This document shows positions 3,270 to 52,657 of a stretch of DNA of 64,000 nucleotides, piece by piece; positions within the stretch are counted from its first letter, which is position 1, and every line of letters begins with the position of its first letter. Both the position numbers and the translations under genes were made by a program. The notes below the pieces were generated by a model. That model ran no database searches and was not told the origin of the DNA. It was given only the letters and a program-made list of their open reading frames with translations. Location: positions 62,001 to 126,000 of the forward strand of contig CAJBNH010000143.1 of NCBI GenBank assembly GCA_903955385.1, written 5' to 3'. The stretch is from an uncultured Myxococcales bacterium. Its GTDB lineage: Bacteria; Myxococcota_A; UBA9042.

Positions 3270-3465
3270 GTCAGGACTAGACATGTGACATCTTTGCTTC
3301 GGCCCGGCCCGGCCCGGCCCGGCCCGGCCTGGCCCGGCCTGGCCCGTTGCGTTGCGAGCGAGTGGTCCTCTCCAAGCCATTGGATCGAGGCAGTTCGCGC
3401 ACTCGGGGCGTGGACGATCTGGCACCGGCCGCCCTGCTGAAAAGTGTCAAGTGTCTAGTCCTGAC
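3270..3465 (+). repeat. MITE-like intergenic repeat family 1, copy 1
   Basis: 196 bp. The left end reads GTCAGGACTAGACATGTGACA and the right end TGTCAAGTGTCTAGTCCTGAC; the two are inverted repeats of about 21 bp with two or three mismatches. Inside are a run of eight to nine CGGCC/TGGCC pentamers (about 3300-3345) and a conserved core (CTCTCCAAGCCATTGGATCG, GGCACCGGCCGCCCTGCTGAA). Three related copies lie at 5852, 6849 and 8104, all in the same orientation. No coding capacity. Together with 3485-3533 it fills the ~405-base gene-free stretch 3171-3575. Confidence 0.75.
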
Positions 3466-43699: not shown

Positions 43700-44349
43700 T
43701 CCACGTGCCGATCATCCACTCGGAAGCGGACTTGGGGAGCCTGGCGCCCCGACTCGCGAGCGAGCTGGTCGGCCGCTTGGGCCACGACGCTTGGGCCACT
43801 CGTAACGCCACGGTCGATACGATGTGGGCGGACATCCAGACGCGCGTGCTGTCCCTGCCGTTGGACTGGTCGACCGTGCGCCTGTTCCAGGACGGGCTGC
43901 CGGTGTTTGGCCGCGAGCGAGACCTGGTCGAGGACCTCGCCAACAAGGGCAGTCGCAATCACCAGCTGCTGATGACGTGCATCGGCCGCGGCGCCACGTT
44001 GACCGGCACCGAGGACCCCGCCCTGCTGGTGCGCGAGTACAACCGGATCGGCCGACTGCTGACCGCCAGCAGCGAAGGGCTGTCCGATCAGGATGCAGCG
44101 GCCCTTGTGCAAGAAGGCCATGACCTGCTTGCCGCCCGCGACAAGTTCATGGCGCAACGCATCGACGCCACGACCGGTCCCCACGAGACCGCTCTGCTGT
44201 TTGTGGGGCTGATGCACGAAGTCGACCAGCAGCTGCAAGACTCGTTCGAGATCGTCGACCTGCTGGCCAGCTTGCCCCTGAACGCAGAACCGGAAAGACA
44301 AATCCAGGAAGGCCATGACCATGAAAAGCAACGCAAGCAAGCCCGCTGA
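43687..44349 (+). CDS. Unknown protein of the gas vesicle operon
   Basis: 220 residues, soluble, starting 13 bases before the end of the receiver gene. The N-terminus is alpha/beta (LVHVPIIHSEADLGSLAPRL), and the middle has GLPVFGRERDLVEDLANKGSRNHQLLMTC and GATLTGTEDPALLVREYNRI. The second half is helical. It recalls a conserved hypothetical family of alpha/beta proteins, but no function can be given. Its tight overlaps with the receiver gene and the CDC48-like ATPase imply a role with them in vesicle assembly or its control. Its C-terminal tail is Glu/Lys/Arg-rich. Confidence 0.6.
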   Translation: MRTLVHVPIIHSEADLGSLAPRLASELVGRLGHDAWATRNATVDTMWADIQTRVLSLPLDWSTVRLFQDGLPVFGRERDLVEDLANKGSRNHQLLMTCIGRGATLTGTEDPALLVREYNRIGRLLTASSEGLSDQDAAALVQEGHDLLAARDKFMAQRIDATTGPHETALLFVGLMHEVDQQLQDSFEIVDLLASLPLNAEPERQIQEGHDHEKQRKQAR

Positions 44350-46507
44350 CCCCCACGTCCTTCGCGTGGCCGAAGCGGCGCCCAAGGACGTCGGACGCGG
44401 CATTGTCCGGCTGGACCCCACCGATCTGGCACTTCTGGGCGGACGCGTCGGGGATGTCATCGAAATCACAGGACAACGCCGGGCCTTCGCGAGGGCGATG
44501 CCGTCGTACGCGGAAGCTAGAGGCAGCGCGACGCTGCAAATGGACGGGGTCGTCCGCGCCAACGCCAAGGCGGGCATAGGCGACCGGGTGACGGTGGCCA
44601 AGGCGACCCACGCGCCCGCAGCCCGCATCGTCTTGCGGCCGACGTCGGGGCAGGCTCCGCTGACCTCGACCGATTCCCGGCACGTGGCCAAGCTGCTCGA
44701 CGGCATGCCGACGGCGGTGGGCGACCGGGTGCGCGCCACGCTGGTGGGCTCGCGCTACCGCGAATTCGAGGTCATGGCGACCACGCCGAAGTCCGGTTGC
44801 GTGATTGTTTCGCCCGAGACGGTGTTGTCGCTGCAGGGCGAAGGGGGCGCAGAGCCCAAGGCATCCGGCGTGTCGTGGGAGGATGTGGGCGGTCTGAAAA
44901 AGGAAATGGGCCGCGTTCGCGAGATGATCGAGCTGCCCTTGCGGCATCCCGGCATCTTCGAGCGGCTGGGCATCGATCCGCCCAAGGGCGTACTGCTGCA
45001 TGGGCCACCGGGAACGGGCAAGACCCTGCTGGCTCGCGCGGTGGCCCACGAGACAGAAGCAGCGTTCCTGTCGATCAGCGGCCCCGAGATCATCCAGAAG
45101 TTCTACGGCGAGAGTGAGGCTCGCCTGCGGAGCATCTTCGAGCAGGCGCGGCGCAGTGCGCCCTGCATCATCTTCATCGACGAGATCGACGCCATTGCCC
45201 CCAAGCGCGAAACGGTGCAGGGCGAGGTCGAAAAGCGGGTCGTCGCCCAGCTGCTGTCGCTGATGGACGGTCTGGAGGGGCGCGGTCAGGTGATCGTCAT
45301 CGCCGCGACCAACCTGCCGAATTCACTGGACCCTGCGCTGCGAAGGCCGGGACGGTTCGACCGCGAAATCGAGATCGGCGTTCCGGACGCGGCGGCGCGT
45401 CGCGAGATTCTGGAGATTCACGTTCGCGGCATGCCCCTTGCCGAAGACGTCGACCTCGACCGGATCGCCGCGCAAGCGCACGGGTTTGTCGGGGCGGATT
45501 TTGACGCGCTGACCCGCGAAGCCGCGATGACGGCCCTGCGGCGGATCATGCCGCATTTGGACCTGTCGGGCGGCGAGCTGTCCTGGGAGAAACTGGAAGC
45601 GCTGGTCGTGACGATGGCCGATTTTCAGGAGGCCTTCTGCGAGATCGAGCCCTCTGCGCTGCGCGAGTTCATTGCGGAAGTGCCCGACGTGTCGTGGGAG
45701 GCCGTGGGTGGCGTCGAGGACGTCAAGCGCGAGCTGCGTGAGGCGGTCGAGTGGCCGCTGTTGCACCCAGCCCTGTACGCCGCGGCCAAGGTGCAGGCGC
45801 CACGGGGAATTCTGCTGCACGGACTGCCGGGAACCGGCAAGACCCTGTTGGCAAAGGCTGTTGCGTCGAGAGGCGGGCTAAACTTCATCGCCGTGCGTGG
45901 TCCAGAGCTGCTGTCGAAGTACGTCGGCGAGAGTGAGCGCGCGATCCGTCAGGTGTTTCGCAAGGCCCGCCAGGCGCGACCGTGCGTCATCTTCTTCGAC
46001 GAGCTGGACGCCATCGCCCAGAGCCGCTCTGGTCATGGCGGCGACTCCGGTGTCGGCGAGCGCGTCCTGGCGCAAATTCTCGTCGAAATGGACGGCATCG
46101 ATGCCTCAGAAGGCGTTCTGGTCATGGCCGCAACCAATCGTCTGGACATGTTGGATGCTGCACTGGTCAGGCCTGGTCGATTTGACTTGATTCTGGAAAT
46201 CCCCATGCCCGACCTCGCCGCCCGCGAGGCCATTTGGCACATCCAGCTGGCGGGGCGCCCGACCACGAGCGATGTCGACTGCAGGGCCTTGGCCGCTGCG
46301 TGCGGCGGGATGAGCGGGGCCGAGATCGAGCTGGCCTGCCGACGGGCGGCGATGAGTGCGGTGCGGCAGTGTGTTGCAAGCGGCGAGCAATCGCTCGCTG
46401 CCGGTGATCTGACGATTTCACAGGCCGACTTGACCTCGGCCGTTGCCGAGGCCCGGGTGGCGGCGGCTTCGAGAGCGCACGCCGGGAATCCCAAGGCGCG
46501 AATCTGA
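44321..46507 (+). CDS. CDC48/VAT-type AAA ATPase
   Basis: 728 residues from the ATG at 44321, eight bases after AGGAAGG; the ATG at 44315 is too close to that site. Residues ~1-180 are a VAT-N-like double-psi barrel domain ([20 protein letters not shown]). D1 has Walker A GPPGTGKT (near 228), [10 protein letters not shown], and an Arg-finger region ([17 protein letters not shown]). D2 has GLPGTGKT (near 501), [14 protein letters not shown] and [16 protein letters not shown]. Both ATPase rings look active. It is an unfoldase or segregase. In this operon it may load, remodel or dismantle vesicle proteins; related ATPases occur in some other gas vesicle clusters. Last gene before a strong hairpin. 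Confidence 0.88.
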
Positions 46508-46511
46508 CCGG

Positions 46512-46557
46512 TTGGGGCGTTGCCACAGGAGCATGGGTCCTTGTGGCGGCGCCCCAA
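46512..46557 (+). terminator. Strong hairpin ending the first gas vesicle operon
   Basis: TTGGGGCGTTGCCACAGG pairs with CCTTGTGGCGGCGCCCCAA to form a stem of about 18 pairs, with two G-T wobbles in the middle. It begins four bases after the stop of the CDC48-type gene. No T-run follows, as is usual for high-G+C genomes. It fits a terminator or 3'-end stabiliser. Confidence 0.65.
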
Positions 46558-46766
46558 GCGGTCAGGCTCGGTGGATGTGGCCATGGGGCGTACGAGTCCC
46601 GATACGTGTCTCCGACCTTGTGAAACGAAACACCCGGGCGCAAGCTTTCTGCCGAGTCCAGAGTATTTGAGTCAATCGATTTCCTGACGCGGGTTTTGAT
46701 TCCAGCGAATCCTGCCGTTGCACTTGGAAGAATGGCGACAAGCGGTCCGTGGGAGTGGTGGACGCC

Positions 46767-48176
46767 ATGGCCGAGATCATCGTCGCCGGCGACCCGTGCC
46801 TGACACGGAAAACCATCATCGAGATGCTGGTCAACCGTGGCTATCGGGTCGACGCCTTGGCCGCGCCCACTGAGCTGCTTGCCTCACTGCGTGCCTGGCG
46901 ACCTGATCTGGCGATCGTCGACGTCGACCGGGCCAAGCGGGCGGACTGGGTTCGCTCTCTCGCGACCATGCAAGAGCAGTACCCAACCGTTGCCGTCATC
47001 GCCACCGGAGCGGACTCGGACGCCGAATCTGCCGTCGAGCTAATGAAGCTTGGCGTCGTCGACTTCATCAGCAAGCCGTTCGCACCCGGCGACCTGACCG
47101 CCCGCGTGGACCGAATCCTCGGTGCGATTCGGGGACGCCCCGCGGTGGGGACGGTTCGTCTGGTCGGCCAGAGTCCGGCGTTTCGTCAGGCCTTGAACCA
47201 CGCCGCGCGCTTCGCCGCCCCCGACATCGGCATTCTGCTGCACGGGGCCACCGGGACGGGCAAAGAGCCGTTCGCCCGCTACATCCACACACGCAGCCGC
47301 CGAGCCAACGGGCCTTTCGTTCCGGTGGACTGCTCGGCCCTGACCGAGAGCCTGTTCGAGAGCGAGTTCTTCGGGCACGACAAGGGGGCGTTCACGGGAG
47401 CGGCCGGCGCCCACAAGGGGCTGTTCGACGCGGCCGACGGCGGCACCCTGTTCCTGGACGAAGTCTGCAACCTGCCCCGTCCCTTGCAGGCCAAGCTGCT
47501 GCGCGTCCTGCAAGAGCGACGGGTCAGACCGGTCGGCAGCCACAAGGACCACGAGGTCGATGTTCGCGTGATTGCGGCCACCAACGCCGACCTTCAGGCC
47601 GCCGCCGACGTGGACACGCCTTCGTTTCGCCAGGACCTCTACTACCGGCTGGCAGAGGTCACCATCGAGCTGCCGCCGCTGTGTCAACGAACCGGGGATG
47701 TCGGCCTGCTTGCGGAATATTTCGTCGCAATTTACGCGCTGGCCTATCAGAGACCCGCCATCAGCATCACCCAGGTGGCGCTGGACTTGCTGCAGCAGTA
47801 CCCGTGGCCGGGAAATGTGCGCGAGTTGGAGAGCGTCATCAAGCACGCGGTGGTTTTGGCGGATTCGTCGATTGGTCCCGAGGACCTGCCGGATCACCTC
47901 CTTCGGACGCGCCGGGCTGACCCGGTGCCGACGCTCGCGCGGATCGAGGTCCTGCCAGAGCCGGAGGCTCACGACGATGGTGCGACGCCGCTGACGGGCA
48001 GCGTCGACCTCAAGGCGATCGGTGCCGAAGCGGCATTGCAGGCAGAGGGGGCGGTGCTGCGCGAGCTGGTGCGTCGTCTCTCACCCTCGGCGGCCCAACT
48101 CGCCCGACTCGTCAACGTGGACGCCAAGACTTTGCGCTCCAAGCTGCGTCGGTTCGACATCGTGCTGCGGCACTGA
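46767..48176 (+). CDS. NtrC-type sigma-54-dependent response regulator
   Basis: 469 residues from the ATG at 46767; a GTG 18 bases upstream is the alternative. The receiver (residues ~1-115) has an Asp (LAIVDVD), Thr (VIATGA) and Lys (ISKPF), but its acidic pocket is thin (VAGDP) and the usual MPxMDG loop is replaced. The AAA+ domain has Walker A GATGTGKE (near 160), the sigma-54 contact GAFTGA (207-212), and GGTLFLDEVCNLP. The C-terminus is a Fis-type HTH (AQLARLVNVDAKTLRSKLRR). It sits between two operons that both start at sigma-54-type promoters and is their probable activator. Confidence 0.9.
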   Translation: MAEIIVAGDPCLTRKTIIEMLVNRGYRVDALAAPTELLASLRAWRPDLAIVDVDRAKRADWVRSLATMQEQYPTVAVIATGADSDAESAVELMKLGVVDFISKPFAPGDLTARVDRILGAIRGRPAVGTVRLVGQSPAFRQALNHAARFAAPDIGILLHGATGTGKEPFARYIHTRSRRANGPFVPVDCSALTESLFESEFFGHDKGAFTGAAGAHKGLFDAADGGTLFLDEVCNLPRPLQAKLLRVLQERRVRPVGSHKDHEVDVRVIAATNADLQAAADVDTPSFRQDLYYRLAEVTIELPPLCQRTGDVGLLAEYFVAIYALAYQRPAISITQVALDLLQQYPWPGNVRELESVIKHAVVLADSSIGPEDLPDHLLRTRRADPVPTLARIEVLPEPEAHDDGATPLTGSVDLKAIGAEAALQAEGAVLRELVRRLSPSAAQLARLVNVDAKTLRSKLRRFDIVLRH

Positions 48177-48311: not shown

Positions 48312-48327
48312 TGGCACCATAGCTGCA
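48312..48327 (+). promoter_or_regulatory. Sigma-54 (RpoN) -24/-12 promoter for gvpA
   Basis: TGGCACCATAGCTGCA matches the consensus TGGCACG-N4-TTGCA except at two positions. The invariant GG (48313-48314) and GC (48325-48326) have the exact 12-base offset. Start of transcription would be near 48338, ~45 bases before gvpA. A perfect dyad TCCCGA-CT-TCGGGA at 48178-48191, ~120 bases upstream, is a candidate activator site. Confidence 0.75.
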
Positions 48328-48382: not shown

Positions 48383-48604
48383 ATGGCAAAGGTTATGAAT
48401 TCGACCGATTCCTCGAGCCTCGCAGAAGTCGTCGATCGCATCCTCGACAAGGGCATCGTCATCGACGCGTGGGTCAAGGTTTCGCTGGTGGGTATCGAGC
48501 TGCTGACGATCGAAGCCCGCGTGGTCATCGCGTCGGTCGAGACGTACCTGAAGTATGCCGAGGCCATCGGCCTCACGGCGGCCGCTGCTGCTCCCCGCGC
48601 GTAG
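48383..48604 (+). CDS. gvpA: Major gas vesicle structural protein GvpA
   Basis: 73 residues, the usual length. The start at 48383 was chosen because AGGAG lies six bases upstream and the conserved N-terminus follows; a longer frame exists. The whole conserved core is present: [55 protein letters not shown]. GvpA polymerises into the ribbed, gas-permeable and water-tight vesicle shell in the cytoplasm. It is first after a sigma-54-type promoter and is followed by a strong hairpin, which would favour high expression of gvpA over downstream genes. Confidence 0.97.
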
Positions 48605-48611
48605 TGTGTAT

Positions 48612-48655
48612 TCCCTTGCACCCGAGGAGCCATGACGGCTCCCCGGGCCAAGGGA
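48612..48655 (+). terminator. Hairpin directly after gvpA (attenuator or mRNA 3' stabiliser)
   Basis: A nested stem starting seven bases after the gvpA stop: TCCCTTG with CAAGGGA, then CCCG with CGGG, then GGAGCC with GGCTCC around the loop ATGAC. That is 17 pairs with one small bulge and one mismatch, and no T-run. Genes downstream lack a visible sigma-54 promoter, so partial read-through is likely. Confidence 0.65.
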
Positions 48656-48725
48656 CTGCGCATCCATGTCGGCCTTCGAATGTCACTACGGTGGCCGACA
48701 GAACACTACGTTGAGGAGGAACACA

Positions 48726-49181
48726 ATGTCACTCAGTCTGTCAACCTTCAACGCAGAAAACATGCGACGTCTGGGCGAAAGCTGTCAGACGGCGCGTGCG
48801 GATCGTGCGGCGGCGACTTCGCGCCGCAAGCGTGAGACAGCACGGTTCCTGGCCGATGCCGCCAGTGCCCGTGGAGAGAGCGAGCTGGCCCGACAGAAGG
48901 CCGCCGCGCAGCAGGCAAAAAGCCTGAAGGCGTTTGGCGACAAGCTTAGGGCTGGTGTTGGCGCGATGCAGCGACGCAACGGTACGGCTCGCGCCGGGCT
49001 GGCTGCGGACCTGCAGGCTGCAGGCGTGGCGTGGCGTGACGGGTTGGCCCGCACGACACCGACGTCCGGCGGCCGGCGCGGACCTGCAGATCTGGAGGCG
49101 CGCAAGCCGGCGCCTTTCGCCAAGGATGCGGCGCCGCAAGTGGCCGCGACCAGTGCCACCCCCTCTGAGGGCAAGCGCTGA
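48726..49181 (+). CDS. GvpC-like gas vesicle protein (putative)
   Basis: 151 residues from the ATG at 48726, behind GAGGAGGAACACA. Residues ~15-110 are one long amphipathic helical region. Residues 40-78 (RFLADAASARG, then QQAKSLKAFGDKLRAGV) fit the spacing of the GvpC 33-residue repeat, in which F-L, A-R, Q-A, L-x-x-F and L recur. A second, weaker unit may follow (LAADLQAAGVAWRDGL). The C-terminal ~40 residues are Pro/Ala/Lys-rich and disordered. GvpC binds outside the shell and strengthens it. The place directly after gvpA is the usual gvpC position. The pattern match is by eye only. Confidence 0.5.
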   Translation: MSLSLSTFNAENMRRLGESCQTARADRAAATSRRKRETARFLADAASARGESELARQKAAAQQAKSLKAFGDKLRAGVGAMQRRNGTARAGLAADLQAAGVAWRDGLARTTPTSGGRRGPADLEARKPAPFAKDAAPQVAATSATPSEGKR

Positions 49182-49243
49182 GCCGCGACCGTCCTTCGAA
49201 CGCAGCGGCACAGGCCGTGGCGGCACGATGAGGCGCAAGGGGA

Positions 49244-49270
49244 GGGTGACGGGCACACCGCCCGTCACCC
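49244..49270 (+). terminator. Perfect hairpin between the gvpC-like gene and gvpN
   Basis: GGGTGACGGGC and GCCCGTCACCC form an uninterrupted 11-bp stem around the loop ACACC. Partial pairing extends outwards. There is no T-run. It lies 62 bases after the gvpC-like stop and 56 bases before gvpN, and could attenuate the structural-gene transcript before the assembly genes. Confidence 0.6.
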
Positions 49271-49325
49271 CTCCCTGCGTGGATAACAACCGGGCGCCCC
49301 GTGCGGCGCGTGCGAAGGTCAACAG

Positions 49326-50360
49326 ATGAAGGAACTCTCACCAGCGCCGCAGCTCTCTCAGGTTTCCAAGCCGTCGCAGGCGCCGACGCAAGTGACGGCA
49401 CCGGATGCGCCCGCCGACTGCGGACTGTGGCTTGAGGCCGCTGCGGGATTTGTCTCCACGCCGGCCATCGAACAAGTCGTCAGGCGGGCCCGCGCCTACC
49501 TGGACGCCGGGTACCCCGTGCACTTTTCCGGACCAGCAGGCATTGGCAAGACGACGCTTGCCTTTCACGTCGCGGCCCTGCGCCAGCGACCGGTCGTGCT
49601 TATCCACGGCGACGAGAGCCTGAAGTCCTCTGACCTGGTGGGCGGCGAGTCCGGCTATCGGCGCAGCAGGGTCGTCGACAACTACGTCCACTCGGTGCTC
49701 AAGACTGAGGAGAACGTCCAGACGCTGTGGGCCGACAATCGGCTGACCCTTGCGTGCAAGCAGGGTTACACGTTGCTGTATGACGAATTCACCCGCTCGC
49801 GGGCCGAGGCGAACAACGCACTGCTGTCGGTCCTTGAGGAGCGTCTGCTCACGATGCCGCGTCAGGGGACTGGCGAGGAAGCGTGCATCGGCGTGCATCC
49901 CGAGTTTCGCGCAATTGTGACCTCGAATCCCGAAGAGTACGCGGGCGTGCATCGGACCCAGGATGCGCTGGCCGACCGTCTGGTCACCATTCGGCTCGAC
50001 CACTTTGACCGCGAGACCGAAGTCGTGGTCACGCAGGCGAAGTCAGGGCTCTCGCGCGAAGACTGCGAGGTCGTCGTCGACATCGTGCGCGGGATGCGCA
50101 AGCTCGGCATCGCCCGCCACGGACCCAGCGTGCGGGCGGCGATCATGATCGCGCGCATGGCTGCCCAAGAGAAAGTCGGCGTCGGCGTGGGCGATCCGTT
50201 GTTCGACGAGGTCTGTCAGGACGTGCTGTCCAACGTCTCCGGCAAGGTCTTTCGCGATGGTGAGCCCGACGTCAGCCACCGCGTGGCGGAGGTCATCGCC
50301 GCGCACTCGATCAAGGCCACGCTGGCTCGCCCCCGCCGCGAGCAAGGAACGCGAGCATGA
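49326..50360 (+). CDS. gvpN: Gas vesicle AAA ATPase GvpN
   Basis: 344 residues. A Pro/Gln-rich leader of ~35 residues is followed by the GvpN MoxR-type AAA domain: YLDAGYPVHFSGPAGIGKTT (Walker A near 69-76), HGDESLKSSDLVGGESGY, TLLYDEFTRSRAEANNALLS (Walker B) and IVTSNPEEYAGVH (sensor 1). These segments are highly specific to GvpN. It helps elongate vesicles, probably by supplying or remodelling GvpA. It follows the gvpC-like gene after a hairpin and overlaps the next gene by an ATGA. Confidence 0.95.
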   Translation: MKELSPAPQLSQVSKPSQAPTQVTAPDAPADCGLWLEAAAGFVSTPAIEQVVRRARAYLDAGYPVHFSGPAGIGKTTLAFHVAALRQRPVVLIHGDESLKSSDLVGGESGYRRSRVVDNYVHSVLKTEENVQTLWADNRLTLACKQGYTLLYDEFTRSRAEANNALLSVLEERLLTMPRQGTGEEACIGVHPEFRAIVTSNPEEYAGVHRTQDALADRLVTIRLDHFDRETEVVVTQAKSGLSREDCEVVVDIVRGMRKLGIARHGPSVRAAIMIARMAAQEKVGVGVGDPLFDEVCQDVLSNVSGKVFRDGEPDVSHRVAEVIAAHSIKATLARPRREQGTRA

Positions 50361-50737
50361 GCACGACCAACCGTCACGTCGTCCAGTTTCGTCTCGGCTG
50401 CCTGGAGCTCGAGCGGTCGCGGCGGCTGTTTGAGCGGGCGGCATTTGTCCGCCGCCTTGCGGCCATCGACCAGCGATTGTCTGAGATCGAAGTCGAAATG
50501 GCGGCCGCCGATGTCTTTCTGGGCAAGCTGCCGATCGGCGCACCGGTTGCGCCGAAGGGACGGCCGTCCGGCATCGAGATCGAGGCAGGTGCGCAGCACG
50601 AGAGCCGACTGCGCCGCGTGGTCCGCTACGGCAGCGCTCCCCTTACCGATTCGCTCTCTGCGGCGTCTGCCGATGGCGGTCAGACCGTCCGGCCGCCGAC
50701 GCCGGGCCGCCGGAGTTCCCAGGAGGTGTCTTCGTGA
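50357..50737 (+). CDS. Unknown small protein of the gas vesicle operon
   Basis: 126 residues, starting in an ATGA overlap with gvpN and ending in a GTGA overlap with gvpF, so it is translationally coupled on both sides. Residues ~15-60 form an amphipathic helix pair (FERAAFVRRLAAIDQRLSEI, EVEMAAADVFLGKLP). The second half is Pro/Ser/Gly-rich and probably disordered. It matches no gas vesicle family I recognise; in the common N-F-G-S-K-J order no gene is expected here. The coupling argues for a real role in assembly. Confidence 0.6.
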   Translation: MSTTNRHVVQFRLGCLELERSRRLFERAAFVRRLAAIDQRLSEIEVEMAAADVFLGKLPIGAPVAPKGRPSGIEIEAGAQHESRLRRVVRYGSAPLTDSLSAASADGGQTVRPPTPGRRSSQEVSS

Positions 50738-51501
50738 AGCAAGGACTGTACCTGTACGCACTTGCCCCTGCCGACGCGTCCTGCGACTTCGGCGCCATCG
50801 GCGTTCCTGAGGACGGAGCTGCAGCAGAAGTGCGGGCCGTCGCCTATCAGGGGGTCGCCGCCATCGTCAGTAGCCACGCCGTGGCTCAGCGTCTCTCGCC
50901 GACCCGTGCCCGGCTGGAGGCCCACTACCGCGTGCTGCGAGAGGCGGGGAAGAACCTGACGCTGGTGCCCGTGGCGTTCGGCCACATCGCCACGGAGCAG
51001 GACATCGTTCGGCTGCTCAAGCGCAACTACAAGGGGATTCTGGAGGAGCTCGAGAGCCTCGACGGCCGCGTGCAGATGTGCGTGCGGGTGGACTGGGACG
51101 CGGAGAACCTGTTCGAGTATTTCATGGGCATCGACCCCGACTTGGCTGCCTTGCGCGATGAGATCTTCGGCCGGGCGACGCCACCGTCCGAGATGCTGAA
51201 GATCGAGCTGGGGCGCATGTTCGACCGACGGCGCAACGAAGAGCGGGAGAAGCTCGGCGAGTCCCTGTTGGCGTCGTTTGAGCACCTGGATGCGCGGACA
51301 GAGCTGCTGGCGCCCCACGGGGAACGGCGGGTGGCCGAGGTGGCCCTGCTGGTGCGGCGCGACCAGGTGGCGGCGCTTGAAGCGACCGTCTACGAAGTGG
51401 CGGGGCGATGGCCCAACGGCTTTGCGTTCGACTTTTCCGGCCCGTTTGCTCCGTTCGACTTCGTGTCGCTCGAGCTCGATTTGGGGCTGAAGGTGGCGTA
51501 G
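50734..51501 (+). CDS. gvpF: Gas vesicle protein GvpF (GvpF/GvpL family), copy 3
   Basis: 255 residues from a GTG eight bases after AGGAGG. This is the most typical of the three family members: GLYLYALAPA at the N-terminus, VAAIVSSHAVAQRL, LEAHYRVLREAGKNLTLVPV, AFGHIATEQDIVRLL, then VRVDWDAENLFEYF and FDFSGPFAPFDFVSLEL at the end. GvpF is thought to bind GvpA and seed assembly. It stands in the usual place before gvpG. Confidence 0.93.
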   Translation: MKQGLYLYALAPADASCDFGAIGVPEDGAAAEVRAVAYQGVAAIVSSHAVAQRLSPTRARLEAHYRVLREAGKNLTLVPVAFGHIATEQDIVRLLKRNYKGILEELESLDGRVQMCVRVDWDAENLFEYFMGIDPDLAALRDEIFGRATPPSEMLKIELGRMFDRRRNEEREKLGESLLASFEHLDARTELLAPHGERRVAEVALLVRRDQVAALEATVYEVAGRWPNGFAFDFSGPFAPFDFVSLELDLGLKVA

Positions 51502-51514
51502 GGGGAGGGGACCC

Positions 51515-51721
51515 GTGTTCAAGGCTTTGCTATGGATCGCGGAGCAGATCAAAGAGCGGGCGGACGCTGAACTCTTCGATCCGGAGCCGGTCCGCGCCGA
51601 GCTTTTGCTGCTGCATCGCCGCTTTGAGCTGGGCGAGATTGGCGAGGCCGAATTCGACAAGCAGGAGGCTGAGCTGATCGAGCGACTCGAGCGGCTGGAG
51701 GACCTTCGTCGTGCGACCTAG
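51515..51721 (+). CDS. gvpG: Gas vesicle protein GvpG
   Basis: 68 residues from a GTG behind GGGGGAGGGG. It starts MFKALLWIAEQIKERADAEL and continues with a helix carrying RAELLLLHRRFELGEIGEAE and FDKQEAELIERLERL, the short helical-hairpin pattern of GvpG. GvpG is a small essential accessory protein that works with GvpF. Its last 11 bases overlap the next gene. Confidence 0.9.
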   Translation: MFKALLWIAEQIKERADAELFDPEPVRAELLLLHRRFELGEIGEAEFDKQEAELIERLERLEDLRRAT

Positions 51722-51959
51722 CCAAGTCAACCGCGAGATGCAACGTCGCATGAGCCTTTGCGAAACGCTCGATCGCGTGCTGAACAAGGGGGTCGTCGTG
51801 CGGGGCGAGCTGGTGATTTGCGTCGCCGACGTCGACCTCGTCTACGTCGGGGTCAACGTCATGTTGTCATCGGTCGAGACGCTGCGCAGCTCACGCAAGG
51901 CGCTCCCGTATCAGGAGAATGGCAATGGAATGGGGAAACGTCCGCGGCAAGGCTTCTGA
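51711..51959 (+). CDS. GvpA-family accessory protein, GvpS-like
   Basis: 82 residues from a GTG inside the end of gvpG. The core SLCETLDRVLNKGVVVRGEL, VICVADVDLVYVGVNVML, SSVETL is a diverged GvpA fold. It differs from GvpA by changes in the first strand and a basic C-terminal tail (SSRKALPYQENGNGMGKRPR). By position, between gvpG and gvpK, it corresponds to GvpS of the Bacillus-type order. The tail overlaps the start of gvpK by 35 bases. Such proteins are minor shell or tip components. Confidence 0.85.
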   Translation: MRPSQVNREMQRRMSLCETLDRVLNKGVVVRGELVICVADVDLVYVGVNVMLSSVETLRSSRKALPYQENGNGMGKRPRQGF

Positions 51960-52266
51960 CGTCGAAGCCATCCTGGGGGTCATGGAGGCGTCCAAGGCGC
52001 CTGAGCCAAGGCGCATCCACGTCGACCCCAACAGCACGCAGCAAGGGCTGTTGCAGCTGGTGTTGTCGGTTGTCGAGCTGCTGCGGCGACTTCTGGAACG
52101 CCAAGCGATGCGGCGGATGACGGCGGGCAGCGTGACGGACGAAGAGGCGGAGCGGATGGGCATCGCCCTGCAGCGGCTGCAAGAGCAGGTCGCCATCCTG
52201 TGCAAGGAAAACGGCATCGACGACCTGAACCTGGATCTCGGACCGCTCGGCCGCCTGTTGGACTGA
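51925..52266 (+). CDS. gvpK: Gas vesicle protein GvpK
   Basis: 113 residues. The ATG at 51925 has AGGAG seven bases upstream; the ATG at 51919 is one base from it and so less likely. RIHVDPNSTQQGLLQLVLSV, VELLRRLLERQAMRRM and GSVTDEEAERMGIALQRL, then DLNLDLGPLGRLLD, are the complete GvpK signature. GvpK is an accessory assembly protein of unclear biochemical role. It overlaps the preceding GvpS-like gene. Confidence 0.95.
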   Translation: MEWGNVRGKASDVEAILGVMEASKAPEPRRIHVDPNSTQQGLLQLVLSVVELLRRLLERQAMRRMTAGSVTDEEAERMGIALQRLQEQVAILCKENGIDDLNLDLGPLGRLLD

Positions 52267-52294
52267 AGCGGAATCGGCAACGCACGGAGACAAG

Positions 52295-52657
52295 ATGCAA
52301 CGCGCACAGATGGCCCACGCAAACCAGTCGACGTCTCTGGCAGACCTGCTCGAGCGCGTGCTCGACAAGGGCGTCGTCATCGTCGGTGACATCAAGATCA
52401 AGCTGGTCGACGTCGAGCTGCTGTCCATCCAAATCCGCCTGGTCATCTGCTCGGTGGACCGGGCGCGAGAGATGGGGCTGGACTGGTGGATGCGCAACGA
52501 GGAGTTCTCCTCGAACGCGAACAAAGAGCCGGCGCGCGTGACCGTCGGCGCCGAAGTCGGCGCGCTGGCGCACCTGTCGGTCTCGCAGGAGATCACCCAA
52601 CTGCGTCAGCGGCTTGCCATGCTGGAGACCGAACTGGCCGAGGGCTCGCCCCGATGA
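52295..52657 (+). CDS. gvpJ: GvpA-family accessory protein GvpJ
   Basis: 120 residues. Residues ~12-60 hold the GvpA-like fold (SLADLLERVLDKGVVIVGDI, KIKLVDVELLSIQIRLVICS), followed by VDRAREMGLDWW, the mark of GvpJ-type proteins. The C-terminal ~55 residues form a coiled helix (EITQLRQRLAMLETELAEG). GvpJ/M proteins are thought to form or nucleate the conical tips. It is the last gvp gene; the hybrid kinase follows after 55 bases and may be on the same transcript. Confidence 0.9.
   Translation: MQRAQMAHANQSTSLADLLERVLDKGVVIVGDIKIKLVDVELLSIQIRLVICSVDRAREMGLDWWMRNEEFSSNANKEPARVTVGAEVGALAHLSVSQEITQLRQRLAMLETELAEGSPR

What the first reader, a model, noticed from the sequence alone, without database searches (positions are those of the whole stretch)
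48605..49325. Two hairpins stepwise separate gvpA, the gvpC-like gene and gvpN
A 17-pair nested hairpin lies seven bases after the gvpA stop, and a perfect 11-bp hairpin lies between the gvpC-like gene and gvpN. Neither has a T-run, and no further sigma-54 promoter is visible. This is a plausible way to set shell protein well above reinforcing protein, and that well above assembly factors, from one promoter.
Basis: partly seen in the sequence, partly recalled or inferred. Interest (0 to 1): 0.55.

Follow-up and report, generated by a model that had tools for sequence, protein, structure and literature searches.

The report
Conserved hairpin behind gas-vesicle gene gvpA
Right after the gene for the main gas-vesicle shell protein the message can fold into a strong hairpin, which recurs at the same place in most related gas-vesicle clusters examined, lacks the mark of an ordinary stop signal, and probably keeps the shell-protein message long-lived so that far more shell than helper protein is made.

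Summary
The hairpins are real. Hairpin 1 (48612-48655, 17 pairs; 23 pairs at 48605-48662) begins seven bases after the gvpA stop. Hairpin 2 (core 49244-49270, 11 pairs; 20 pairs at 49233-49280) lies between the gvpC-like gene and gvpN. Both beat all 200 shuffles, occur once in the genome and have no T-run.

Comparison separates the two. Behind gvpA, 75 of 82 gene ends (65 public loci plus the window) carry an unusually stable hairpin (median z -4.3; loop about 40 nt after the stop), against 26 of 290 ends of other gvp genes and 38 of 260 other gene ends. U-tracts are not enriched. Hairpin 2 is sporadic (18 of 55 comparable loci).

Best reading: hairpin 1 is a 3' decay barrier that stabilises gvpA mRNA from one sigma-54-driven operon, rather than a classical terminator. 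The stem-loop at the same place in Halobacterium is reported to stabilise gvpA mRNA, and E. coli operons use U-less protective hairpins. U-less or Rho-linked termination remains possible. No RNA data exist for this organism.

The parts
48312..48327 (+). sigma-54 type -24/-12 promoter (TGGCAC-N5-CTGCA), 71 nt upstream of the gvpA start
   Evidence: one mismatch to the recalled consensus; a similar site lies within 300 nt upstream of 52 of 78 gvpA copies in the loci, chance about 3% per 300 nt
48383..48604 (+). gvpA, gas-vesicle shell protein (73 aa)
   Evidence: Pfam PF00741 1.3e-17; NCBIfam PRK09371 1e-39
48605..48662 (+). hairpin 1, 23 pairs (17-pair core 48612-48655), no U-tract; proposed 3' decay barrier of gvpA mRNA
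   Evidence: 0 of 200 shuffles; strong hairpin in this position at 75 of 82 gvpA ends, no U-tract enrichment; single copy in genome
48667..48702 (+). hairpin 1b (8-pair outer stem TGTCGGCC/GGCCGACA plus a short inner stem), 23 nt before the gvpC-like start; possible 5' cap of the downstream RNA
   Evidence: not generally conserved (19 of 82 ends)
48726..49181 (+). gvpC-like gene (151 aa), start after GAGGAGG at 48714-48720
   Evidence: no Pfam or NCBIfam match; iterated profile links it to genes at the same place and to Nostoc GvpC
49233..49280 (+). hairpin 2, 20 pairs (11-pair perfect core 49244-49270), no U-tract
   Evidence: z -6.05, 0 of 200; single copy; similar hairpins behind gvpC-like genes only sporadic
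49326..50360 (+). gvpN (AAA ATPase, assembly factor)
   Evidence: NCBIfam TIGR02640 5.1e-103
50357..52657 (+). rest of the operon: unknown 126-aa ORF, gvpF/L, gvpG, GvpA-like gvpS, gvpK, GvpA-like gvpJ
   Evidence: Pfam PF06386, PF05120, PF00741, PF05121, PF00741
46749..48176 (+). response regulator with sigma-54 activation domain, the likely activator of the gvpA promoter
   Evidence: Pfam PF00072 and PF00158; role by inference (sigma-54 NtrC-like GvrA drives gvpA1 in Serratia, PMC4982088, passages read)

Best explanation
Hairpin 1 is a 3' decay barrier (segmental mRNA-stability element). The operon gvpA-gvpC-like-gvpN-... is transcribed from one sigma-54 promoter. The long RNA is then cut, or ends, downstream of gvpA, 3'-5' exonucleases stop at hairpin 1, and a short, long-lived gvpA mRNA accumulates while the rest decays fast. 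This would put GvpA far above GvpC and the assembly factors. Shown here: the hairpin, its stability, its conserved position, the lack of a U-tract, one visible promoter. Inferred: cleavage, exonuclease arrest, half-lives, protein ratios. Hairpin 2 may add a second such boundary, at most in some lineages.
For: Stable hairpin behind gvpA in 75 of 82 gvpA ends (at most 2 of 40 shuffles as stable), median z -4.34; other gvp gene ends 26 of 290, medians near 0; other gene ends of the same loci 38 of 260, sampled from 322. After grouping at 70% identity, 33 of 41 groups have median z <= -2; the window's 80 nt is no more like most others than shuffled sequence is, so the structure, not the letters, is kept. 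Loop centre 40.5 nt after the stop, interquartile range 36-44.5. In six betaproteobacterial loci, 7 pairs with both sides changed against 3.0 in shuffles (0 of 500). U-tract: 1 of 82 by the strict test; 10 of 82 by a loose test, 13.9 expected. 14 of 15 loci with tandem gvpA copies have a hairpin of -25 kcal/mol or better behind every copy. L042, where gvpN directly follows gvpA, keeps it. Halobacterium: deletion of the gvpA-gvpC stem-loop left read-through unchanged, read as mRNA stabilisation; half-lives about 90 min for gvpA and 10 min for gvpACNO RNA (PMC4390858, passages read). E. coli: 26 of 34 upstream-stabilised operon pairs end at stable hairpins without U-tract, with two in a row in menBCE (PMC5927463, section 7 read).
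Against: No RNA data for this organism. Structure alone cannot tell a decay barrier from a U-less terminator. GC-rich bacteria are reported to have many transcript ends at U-lacking hairpins, called I-shaped terminators (PMC12403871, passages). In a 664-kb sample of this genome 12 of 209 gene ends have comparably strong hairpins (the gvpA end among them), 3 of them at 66 convergent ends where a terminator would be expected. T-runs of 4 or more are slightly over expectation in relatives (11 against 7.3). A 2022 review still calls the Halobacterium element a termination signal (PMC9501494, passage). By the same test the Halobacterium end (8 of 200 shuffles) and the other haloarchaeal ends are weak or negative, as are one of the two Nostoc copies, Spartinivicinus and Methylosinus.
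Confidence: 0.58

Rival explanations
1. Hairpin 1 is a leaky transcription terminator without a U-tract (I-shaped), so that most polymerases stop after gvpA and a few read through to gvpC and gvpN.
For: Position right behind the most needed gene; very stable GC-rich stem; U-lacking hairpin ends are common in high-GC bacteria (PMC12403871 and PMC8269248, passages); some other gene ends in this genome carry such stems, including 3 of 66 convergent ends. Thiodictyon's gvpA, whose next annotated gene is not a gvp gene, has an A-tract/T-tract hairpin, a true terminator shape.
Against: No U-tract and no enrichment of one at 82 gvpA ends, including AT-richer genomes. Convergent gene ends in this genome mostly lack strong hairpins (median z -0.17), so U-less hairpins are not its usual terminator. 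Deletion in Halobacterium left read-through unchanged (PMC4390858).
Confidence: 0.22
2. Rho stops transcription in the untranslated gap between gvpA and gvpC, and exonucleases trim the RNA back to hairpin 1; the hairpin sets the 3' end and stability, Rho sets the ratio.
For: Untranslated gap of 121 nt here; median 134 nt from the gvpA stop to the first possible gvpC-like start in 65 loci. U-lacking hairpin ends are also discussed as trimmed Rho ends (PMC8269248, passage).
Against: The gap here is largely base-paired, which is poor for Rho loading (recalled); no test for rut sites was made.
Confidence: 0.13
3. The hairpins are chance or neutral structures of a GC-rich genome, or copies of a repeated palindrome.
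For: GC content of the gvpA-gvpN gap is 0.67; hairpin 2 and hairpin 1b are not generally conserved.
Against: 0 of 200 dinucleotide shuffles as stable for either hairpin; each occurs once in the 5.3-Mb assembly; hairpin 1 recurs at the same place with different sequence.
Confidence: 0.04

Closest known systems
Stem-loop between gvpA and gvpC of Halobacterium salinarum (p-vac, mc-vac), and the gvpA stem-loop of Haloferax mediterranei
   Same: Place in the operon (gvpA | stem-loop | gvpC, gvpN), abundant short gvpA RNA as the need it serves; reported to stabilise gvpA mRNA (PMC4390858; PMC8303175, passages, citing Jager 2002, not read).
   Different: Archaeal, other RNases and promoters; no sequence relation; pNRC100's stem is weaker (13 pairs, -19.6 kcal/mol). 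Effect not tested in this bacterium.
E. coli protective 3' hairpins of differentially decaying operons (malEFG, menBCE)
   Same: U-less stable hairpin at the boundary between a stabilised first gene and less stable downstream genes; menBCE has two in a row with stepwise falling stability (PMC5927463, section 7 read).
   Different: Other genes; there the hairpins usually lie inside the next coding sequence, here in an untranslated gap just behind the stop.
Intercistronic hairpin of the Rhodobacter puf operon
   Same: A hairpin inside an operon sets stoichiometry of complex parts by segmental stability (PMC11354728, passage and reference titles).
   Different: Photosynthesis genes; not compared by sequence here.
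Calothrix gvpABC overlapping transcripts
   Same: Bacterial gas-vesicle operon with three overlapping transcripts (PMC6202907, passage).
   Different: Cause of the transcript ends not seen; an antisense RNA is described there.

Membership tests
Intrinsic (Rho-independent) terminator, classical type | GC-rich stem-loop | tested here: met
Intrinsic (Rho-independent) terminator, classical type | U-tract directly after the stem | tested here: not met
   none in the window; 1 of 82 gvpA ends by the strict test, 10 of 82 against 13.9 expected by the loose test
Segmental mRNA-stability hairpin (malEFG, puf, E. coli differential decay) | stable U-less hairpin at the boundary behind the upstream gene of an operon | tested here: met
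Segmental mRNA-stability hairpin (malEFG, puf, E. coli differential decay) | no separate promoter for the downstream genes | tested here: inconclusive
   no sigma-54 match between gvpA and gvpN in the window and 9 of 66 loci with one; no sigma-70-like match; other promoter types not covered
Segmental mRNA-stability hairpin (malEFG, puf, E. coli differential decay) | conserved in relatives | tested here: met
   hairpin 1: 75 of 82; hairpin 2: only 18 of 55
Segmental mRNA-stability hairpin (malEFG, puf, E. coli differential decay) | longer half-life of the upstream segment, lost when the hairpin is removed | not testable with these tools
   needs RNA work
Haloarchaeal gvpA 3' stem-loop | stem-loop between gvpA and gvpC | tested here: met
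   Halobacterium stem recovered at the same place
Repeated extragenic palindrome (REP-like) | many copies in the genome | tested here: not met
   one copy each of hairpin 1 and hairpin 2
Known Rfam RNA family | match above gathering score | tested here: not met
   0 matches in the window

The most novel reading that the evidence does not exclude
A hairpin locked in position about 40 nt behind the gvpA stop, free in sequence and without a U-tract, is a standard accessory of gas-vesicle operons across many bacterial phyla and arose in parallel in haloarchaea: shell-to-helper stoichiometry of this organelle is set by mRNA decay rather than by promoters, with U-tailed terminators only where gvpA stands alone or a tandem copy has its own promoter.
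Probability: 0.35. Interest if true: 0.6.

Novelty: new member of a known kind. Interest (0 to 1): 0.45.

Why it matters
Gas vesicles need a very large excess of one shell protein over the helpers, and the operons are now moved between species as acoustic reporters. If this hairpin sets the ratio, it is a part that should be kept or tuned when such operons are rebuilt. It would also extend a mechanism reported for haloarchaea to bacteria at large. The seven literature searches made with gas-vesicle terms listed no paper whose title or opening abstract reports such a hairpin behind gvpA in bacteria; most listed papers were not opened.

Tried and rejected
Rejected: classical terminator (no U-tract). 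Repeated palindrome (single copy). Known RNA family. Separate sigma-54 promoter for gvpC or gvpN in the window. Hairpin 1b as a general feature: 19 of 82. Hairpin 2 as a general feature: 18 of 55, and 0 of 15 where the gap to gvpN is under 60 nt.

Led nowhere: viral contigs gave no relative. Consensus structures of two deltaproteobacterial groups gave little covariation (0 of 22 pairs in A3; 4 of 18 in A4). The Haloferax paper of 2002 is not held. The Haloquadratum genome paper's stem-loop is a replication origin. In the Methylosinus 3'-end paper no gas-vesicle term occurs.

Rows dropped or uncertain: 15 of 80 loci lack a gvpA hit, partly because contigs end there. L051's gvpA hit is short and its stop is probably misread; a strong hairpin follows further on; it was kept and counted as a miss. 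The gvpA ends are not independent (41 groups at 70% identity). The gene caller behind the genome control is home-made (458 genes, 86% coverage); a first, smaller run gave the same picture. Grouping at 60% identity merged nearly everything, at the level of random similarity, and was not used. Of 46 plasmid records with a gvpA-like hit, 10 were fetched, chosen by me for diversity. Of their 11 gvpA ends, 4 had 0 of 200 shuffles as stable (L116, L117, L120 first copy, L121), 1 had 8 of 200 (L122, Halobacterium) and 6 had 15 to 182 of 200 (L118, L119, L120 second copy, L123, L124, L125).

Full report
What is there. The window holds a gas-vesicle operon on the + strand: gvpA (48383-48604), a gvpC-like gene (48726-49181), gvpN (49326-50360), an unknown 126-aa ORF, gvpF/L, gvpG, a GvpA-like gvpS, gvpK and a GvpA-like gvpJ (Pfam; NCBIfam). 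A response regulator with a sigma-54 activation domain (46749-48176) lies upstream, and a sigma-54-type site lies at 48312-48327. The window is part of an unnamed 5.3-Mb assembly; the closest GvpN matches in public genomes are from Myxococcales and other deltaproteobacterial MAGs.

The observation. Hairpin 1 has the 17-pair core described, at 48612-48655, seven bases after the gvpA stop, and the fold adds six outer pairs (48605-48662). Hairpin 2 has the perfect 11-pair core at 49244-49270, with nine more pairs to 49233-49280. Both exceed all 200 dinucleotide shuffles. Neither has a T-run. Both occur once in the genome. They are among the strongest short hairpins of the + strand of the window. 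A third hairpin at 48667-48702 lies 23 nt before the gvpC-like start at 48726, which has a GAGGAGG at 48714-48720.

Comparison behind gvpA. One genome scan with a GvpN alignment gave 80 loci; 65 of them and the window hold gvpA, giving 82 gvpA ends with 100 nt of sequence behind them. In 75 of 82, at most 2 of 40 shuffles reach the observed stability; median z is -4.34. The same test on ends of gvpF, G, N, K, J and S gives 26 of 290, with medians near zero, and on other gene ends of the same loci 38 of 260 (sampled from 322). The best frame starts 12-18 nt after the stop in 56 of 82 cases, whereas controls pile up at the edges of the range. Loop centres lie 40.5 nt behind the stop (interquartile range 36-44.5). 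The sequences differ: grouping at 70% identity leaves 41 groups, of which 33 have a median z of -2 or lower, and the window's 80 nt resembles the others little more than shuffled sequence does (median identity 0.525 against 0.519). Within six betaproteobacterial loci the stem shows 7 pairs with both sides changed against 3.0 in shuffles (0 of 500); an alignment of eight deltaproteobacterial ends shows none.

No U-tract. One of 82 ends has five or more T in eight bases just after the stem. Because a T-tract could pair with an A-tract and hide in the stem, a looser test covered the 3' arm and 15 bases beyond: 10 of 82, with 13.9 expected from shuffles; runs of four or more T were 11 against 7.3 expected. 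So a few relatives may have real terminators, but the group does not. A contrast: the gvpA of Thiodictyon syntrophicum, whose next annotated gene is not a gvp gene, has a long hairpin with paired A- and T-tracts, and in L094 the first of two tandem copies, each with its own sigma-54-like site, is followed by a T-run while the second is not.

Behind the gvpC-like gene. An iterated profile started from the window's protein finds a gene between gvpA and gvpN in nearly all loci (70 ORFs) and also matches Nostoc GvpC; alanine-rich helical composition may inflate such scores. Behind these genes, 18 of 55 with at least 60 nt before gvpN, and 0 of 15 with less, show a strong hairpin. L036, L103 and L109 share it with the window; L034, L035, L038, L039, L040 and L050 do not. 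Hairpin 2 is thus real here but not a general part.

Is it this organism's usual terminator? In 664 kb of the assembly, including the window, 209 gene ends have at least 50 nt of space. Twelve have hairpins as striking as hairpin 1 or nearly so (it is one of them), 3 of them among 66 convergent ends. Convergent ends as a class are not enriched (median z -0.17). U-less hairpins are therefore not the general way genes end here, though a few ends could be of that kind.

Promoters. 52 of 78 gvpA copies have a sigma-54-like site within 300 nt, against about 3% by chance. Between the last gvpA and gvpN, 9 of 66 loci have one, which by my arithmetic (about 3% per 300 nt over roughly 1.1 kb) is near chance. 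This fits one main promoter in front of gvpA, but other promoter types were not tested in relatives.

Mechanism. [quoted passage not shown] mc-gvpA RNA lives about 90 min and the long RNA 10 min (PMC4390858, passages). A later review again speaks of a termination signal (PMC9501494, passage), so the point is not closed. In E. coli, U-less hairpins protect the upstream part of operons from 3'-5' decay, and menBCE has two in a row (PMC5927463, section 7). On this evidence I take hairpin 1 as a decay barrier (0.58), with U-less termination (0.22) and Rho plus trimming (0.13) as rivals. The steps of cleavage, exonuclease arrest and protein ratio are inferred; none has been measured in this organism.

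Novelty. The kind of element is known, from haloarchaeal gvpA and from E. coli and Rhodobacter operons. What the comparison adds is that a U-less hairpin at a fixed place behind gvpA recurs in gas-vesicle clusters of many bacterial phyla represented (record titles name Myxococcales, Desulfobacterales, Planctomycetota, Acidobacteria, betaproteobacteria, Lentisphaerae, Calditrichaeota and others). The sample was selected by GvpN similarity to the window and may share history by transfer of whole clusters. The weak or negative results in haloarchaea and in some plasmid-borne bacterial copies limit any claim of universality.

Noticed in passing
window 46508-46560: A strong U-less hairpin (-35.9 kcal/mol, z about -4.2) directly follows the CDC48-type AAA ATPase gene 44315-46507, upstream of the response regulator; second strongest short hairpin of the + strand.
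   Followed up: partly
window 50357-50737: A 126-aa ORF between gvpN and gvpF without Pfam or NCBIfam match, with relatives (about 40-51% identity) at the same place in L005-L008; a possible unnamed gas-vesicle gene.
   Followed up: no
L116 (Thiodictyon syntrophicum plasmid), about 1730-1788: A gvpA whose next annotated gene is not a gvp gene is followed by a 26-pair hairpin with A- and T-tracts, unlike operon copies.
   Followed up: partly
L042 4611-5001: gvpA followed by gvpN after 96 nt with no gvpC-like gene between, yet the hairpin is kept.
   Followed up: partly
L094 2978-3788: Two gvpA copies with identical sigma-54-like sites; the first has a T-run behind its hairpin, the second does not.
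   Followed up: no
L008 (GvpN hit of G176:C110): The gvpN reading frame shows one in-frame TAG in this draft genome.
   Followed up: no
window 3301-3346: A GGCCC-rich simple repeat that folds strongly, seen in the hairpin scan.
   Followed up: no
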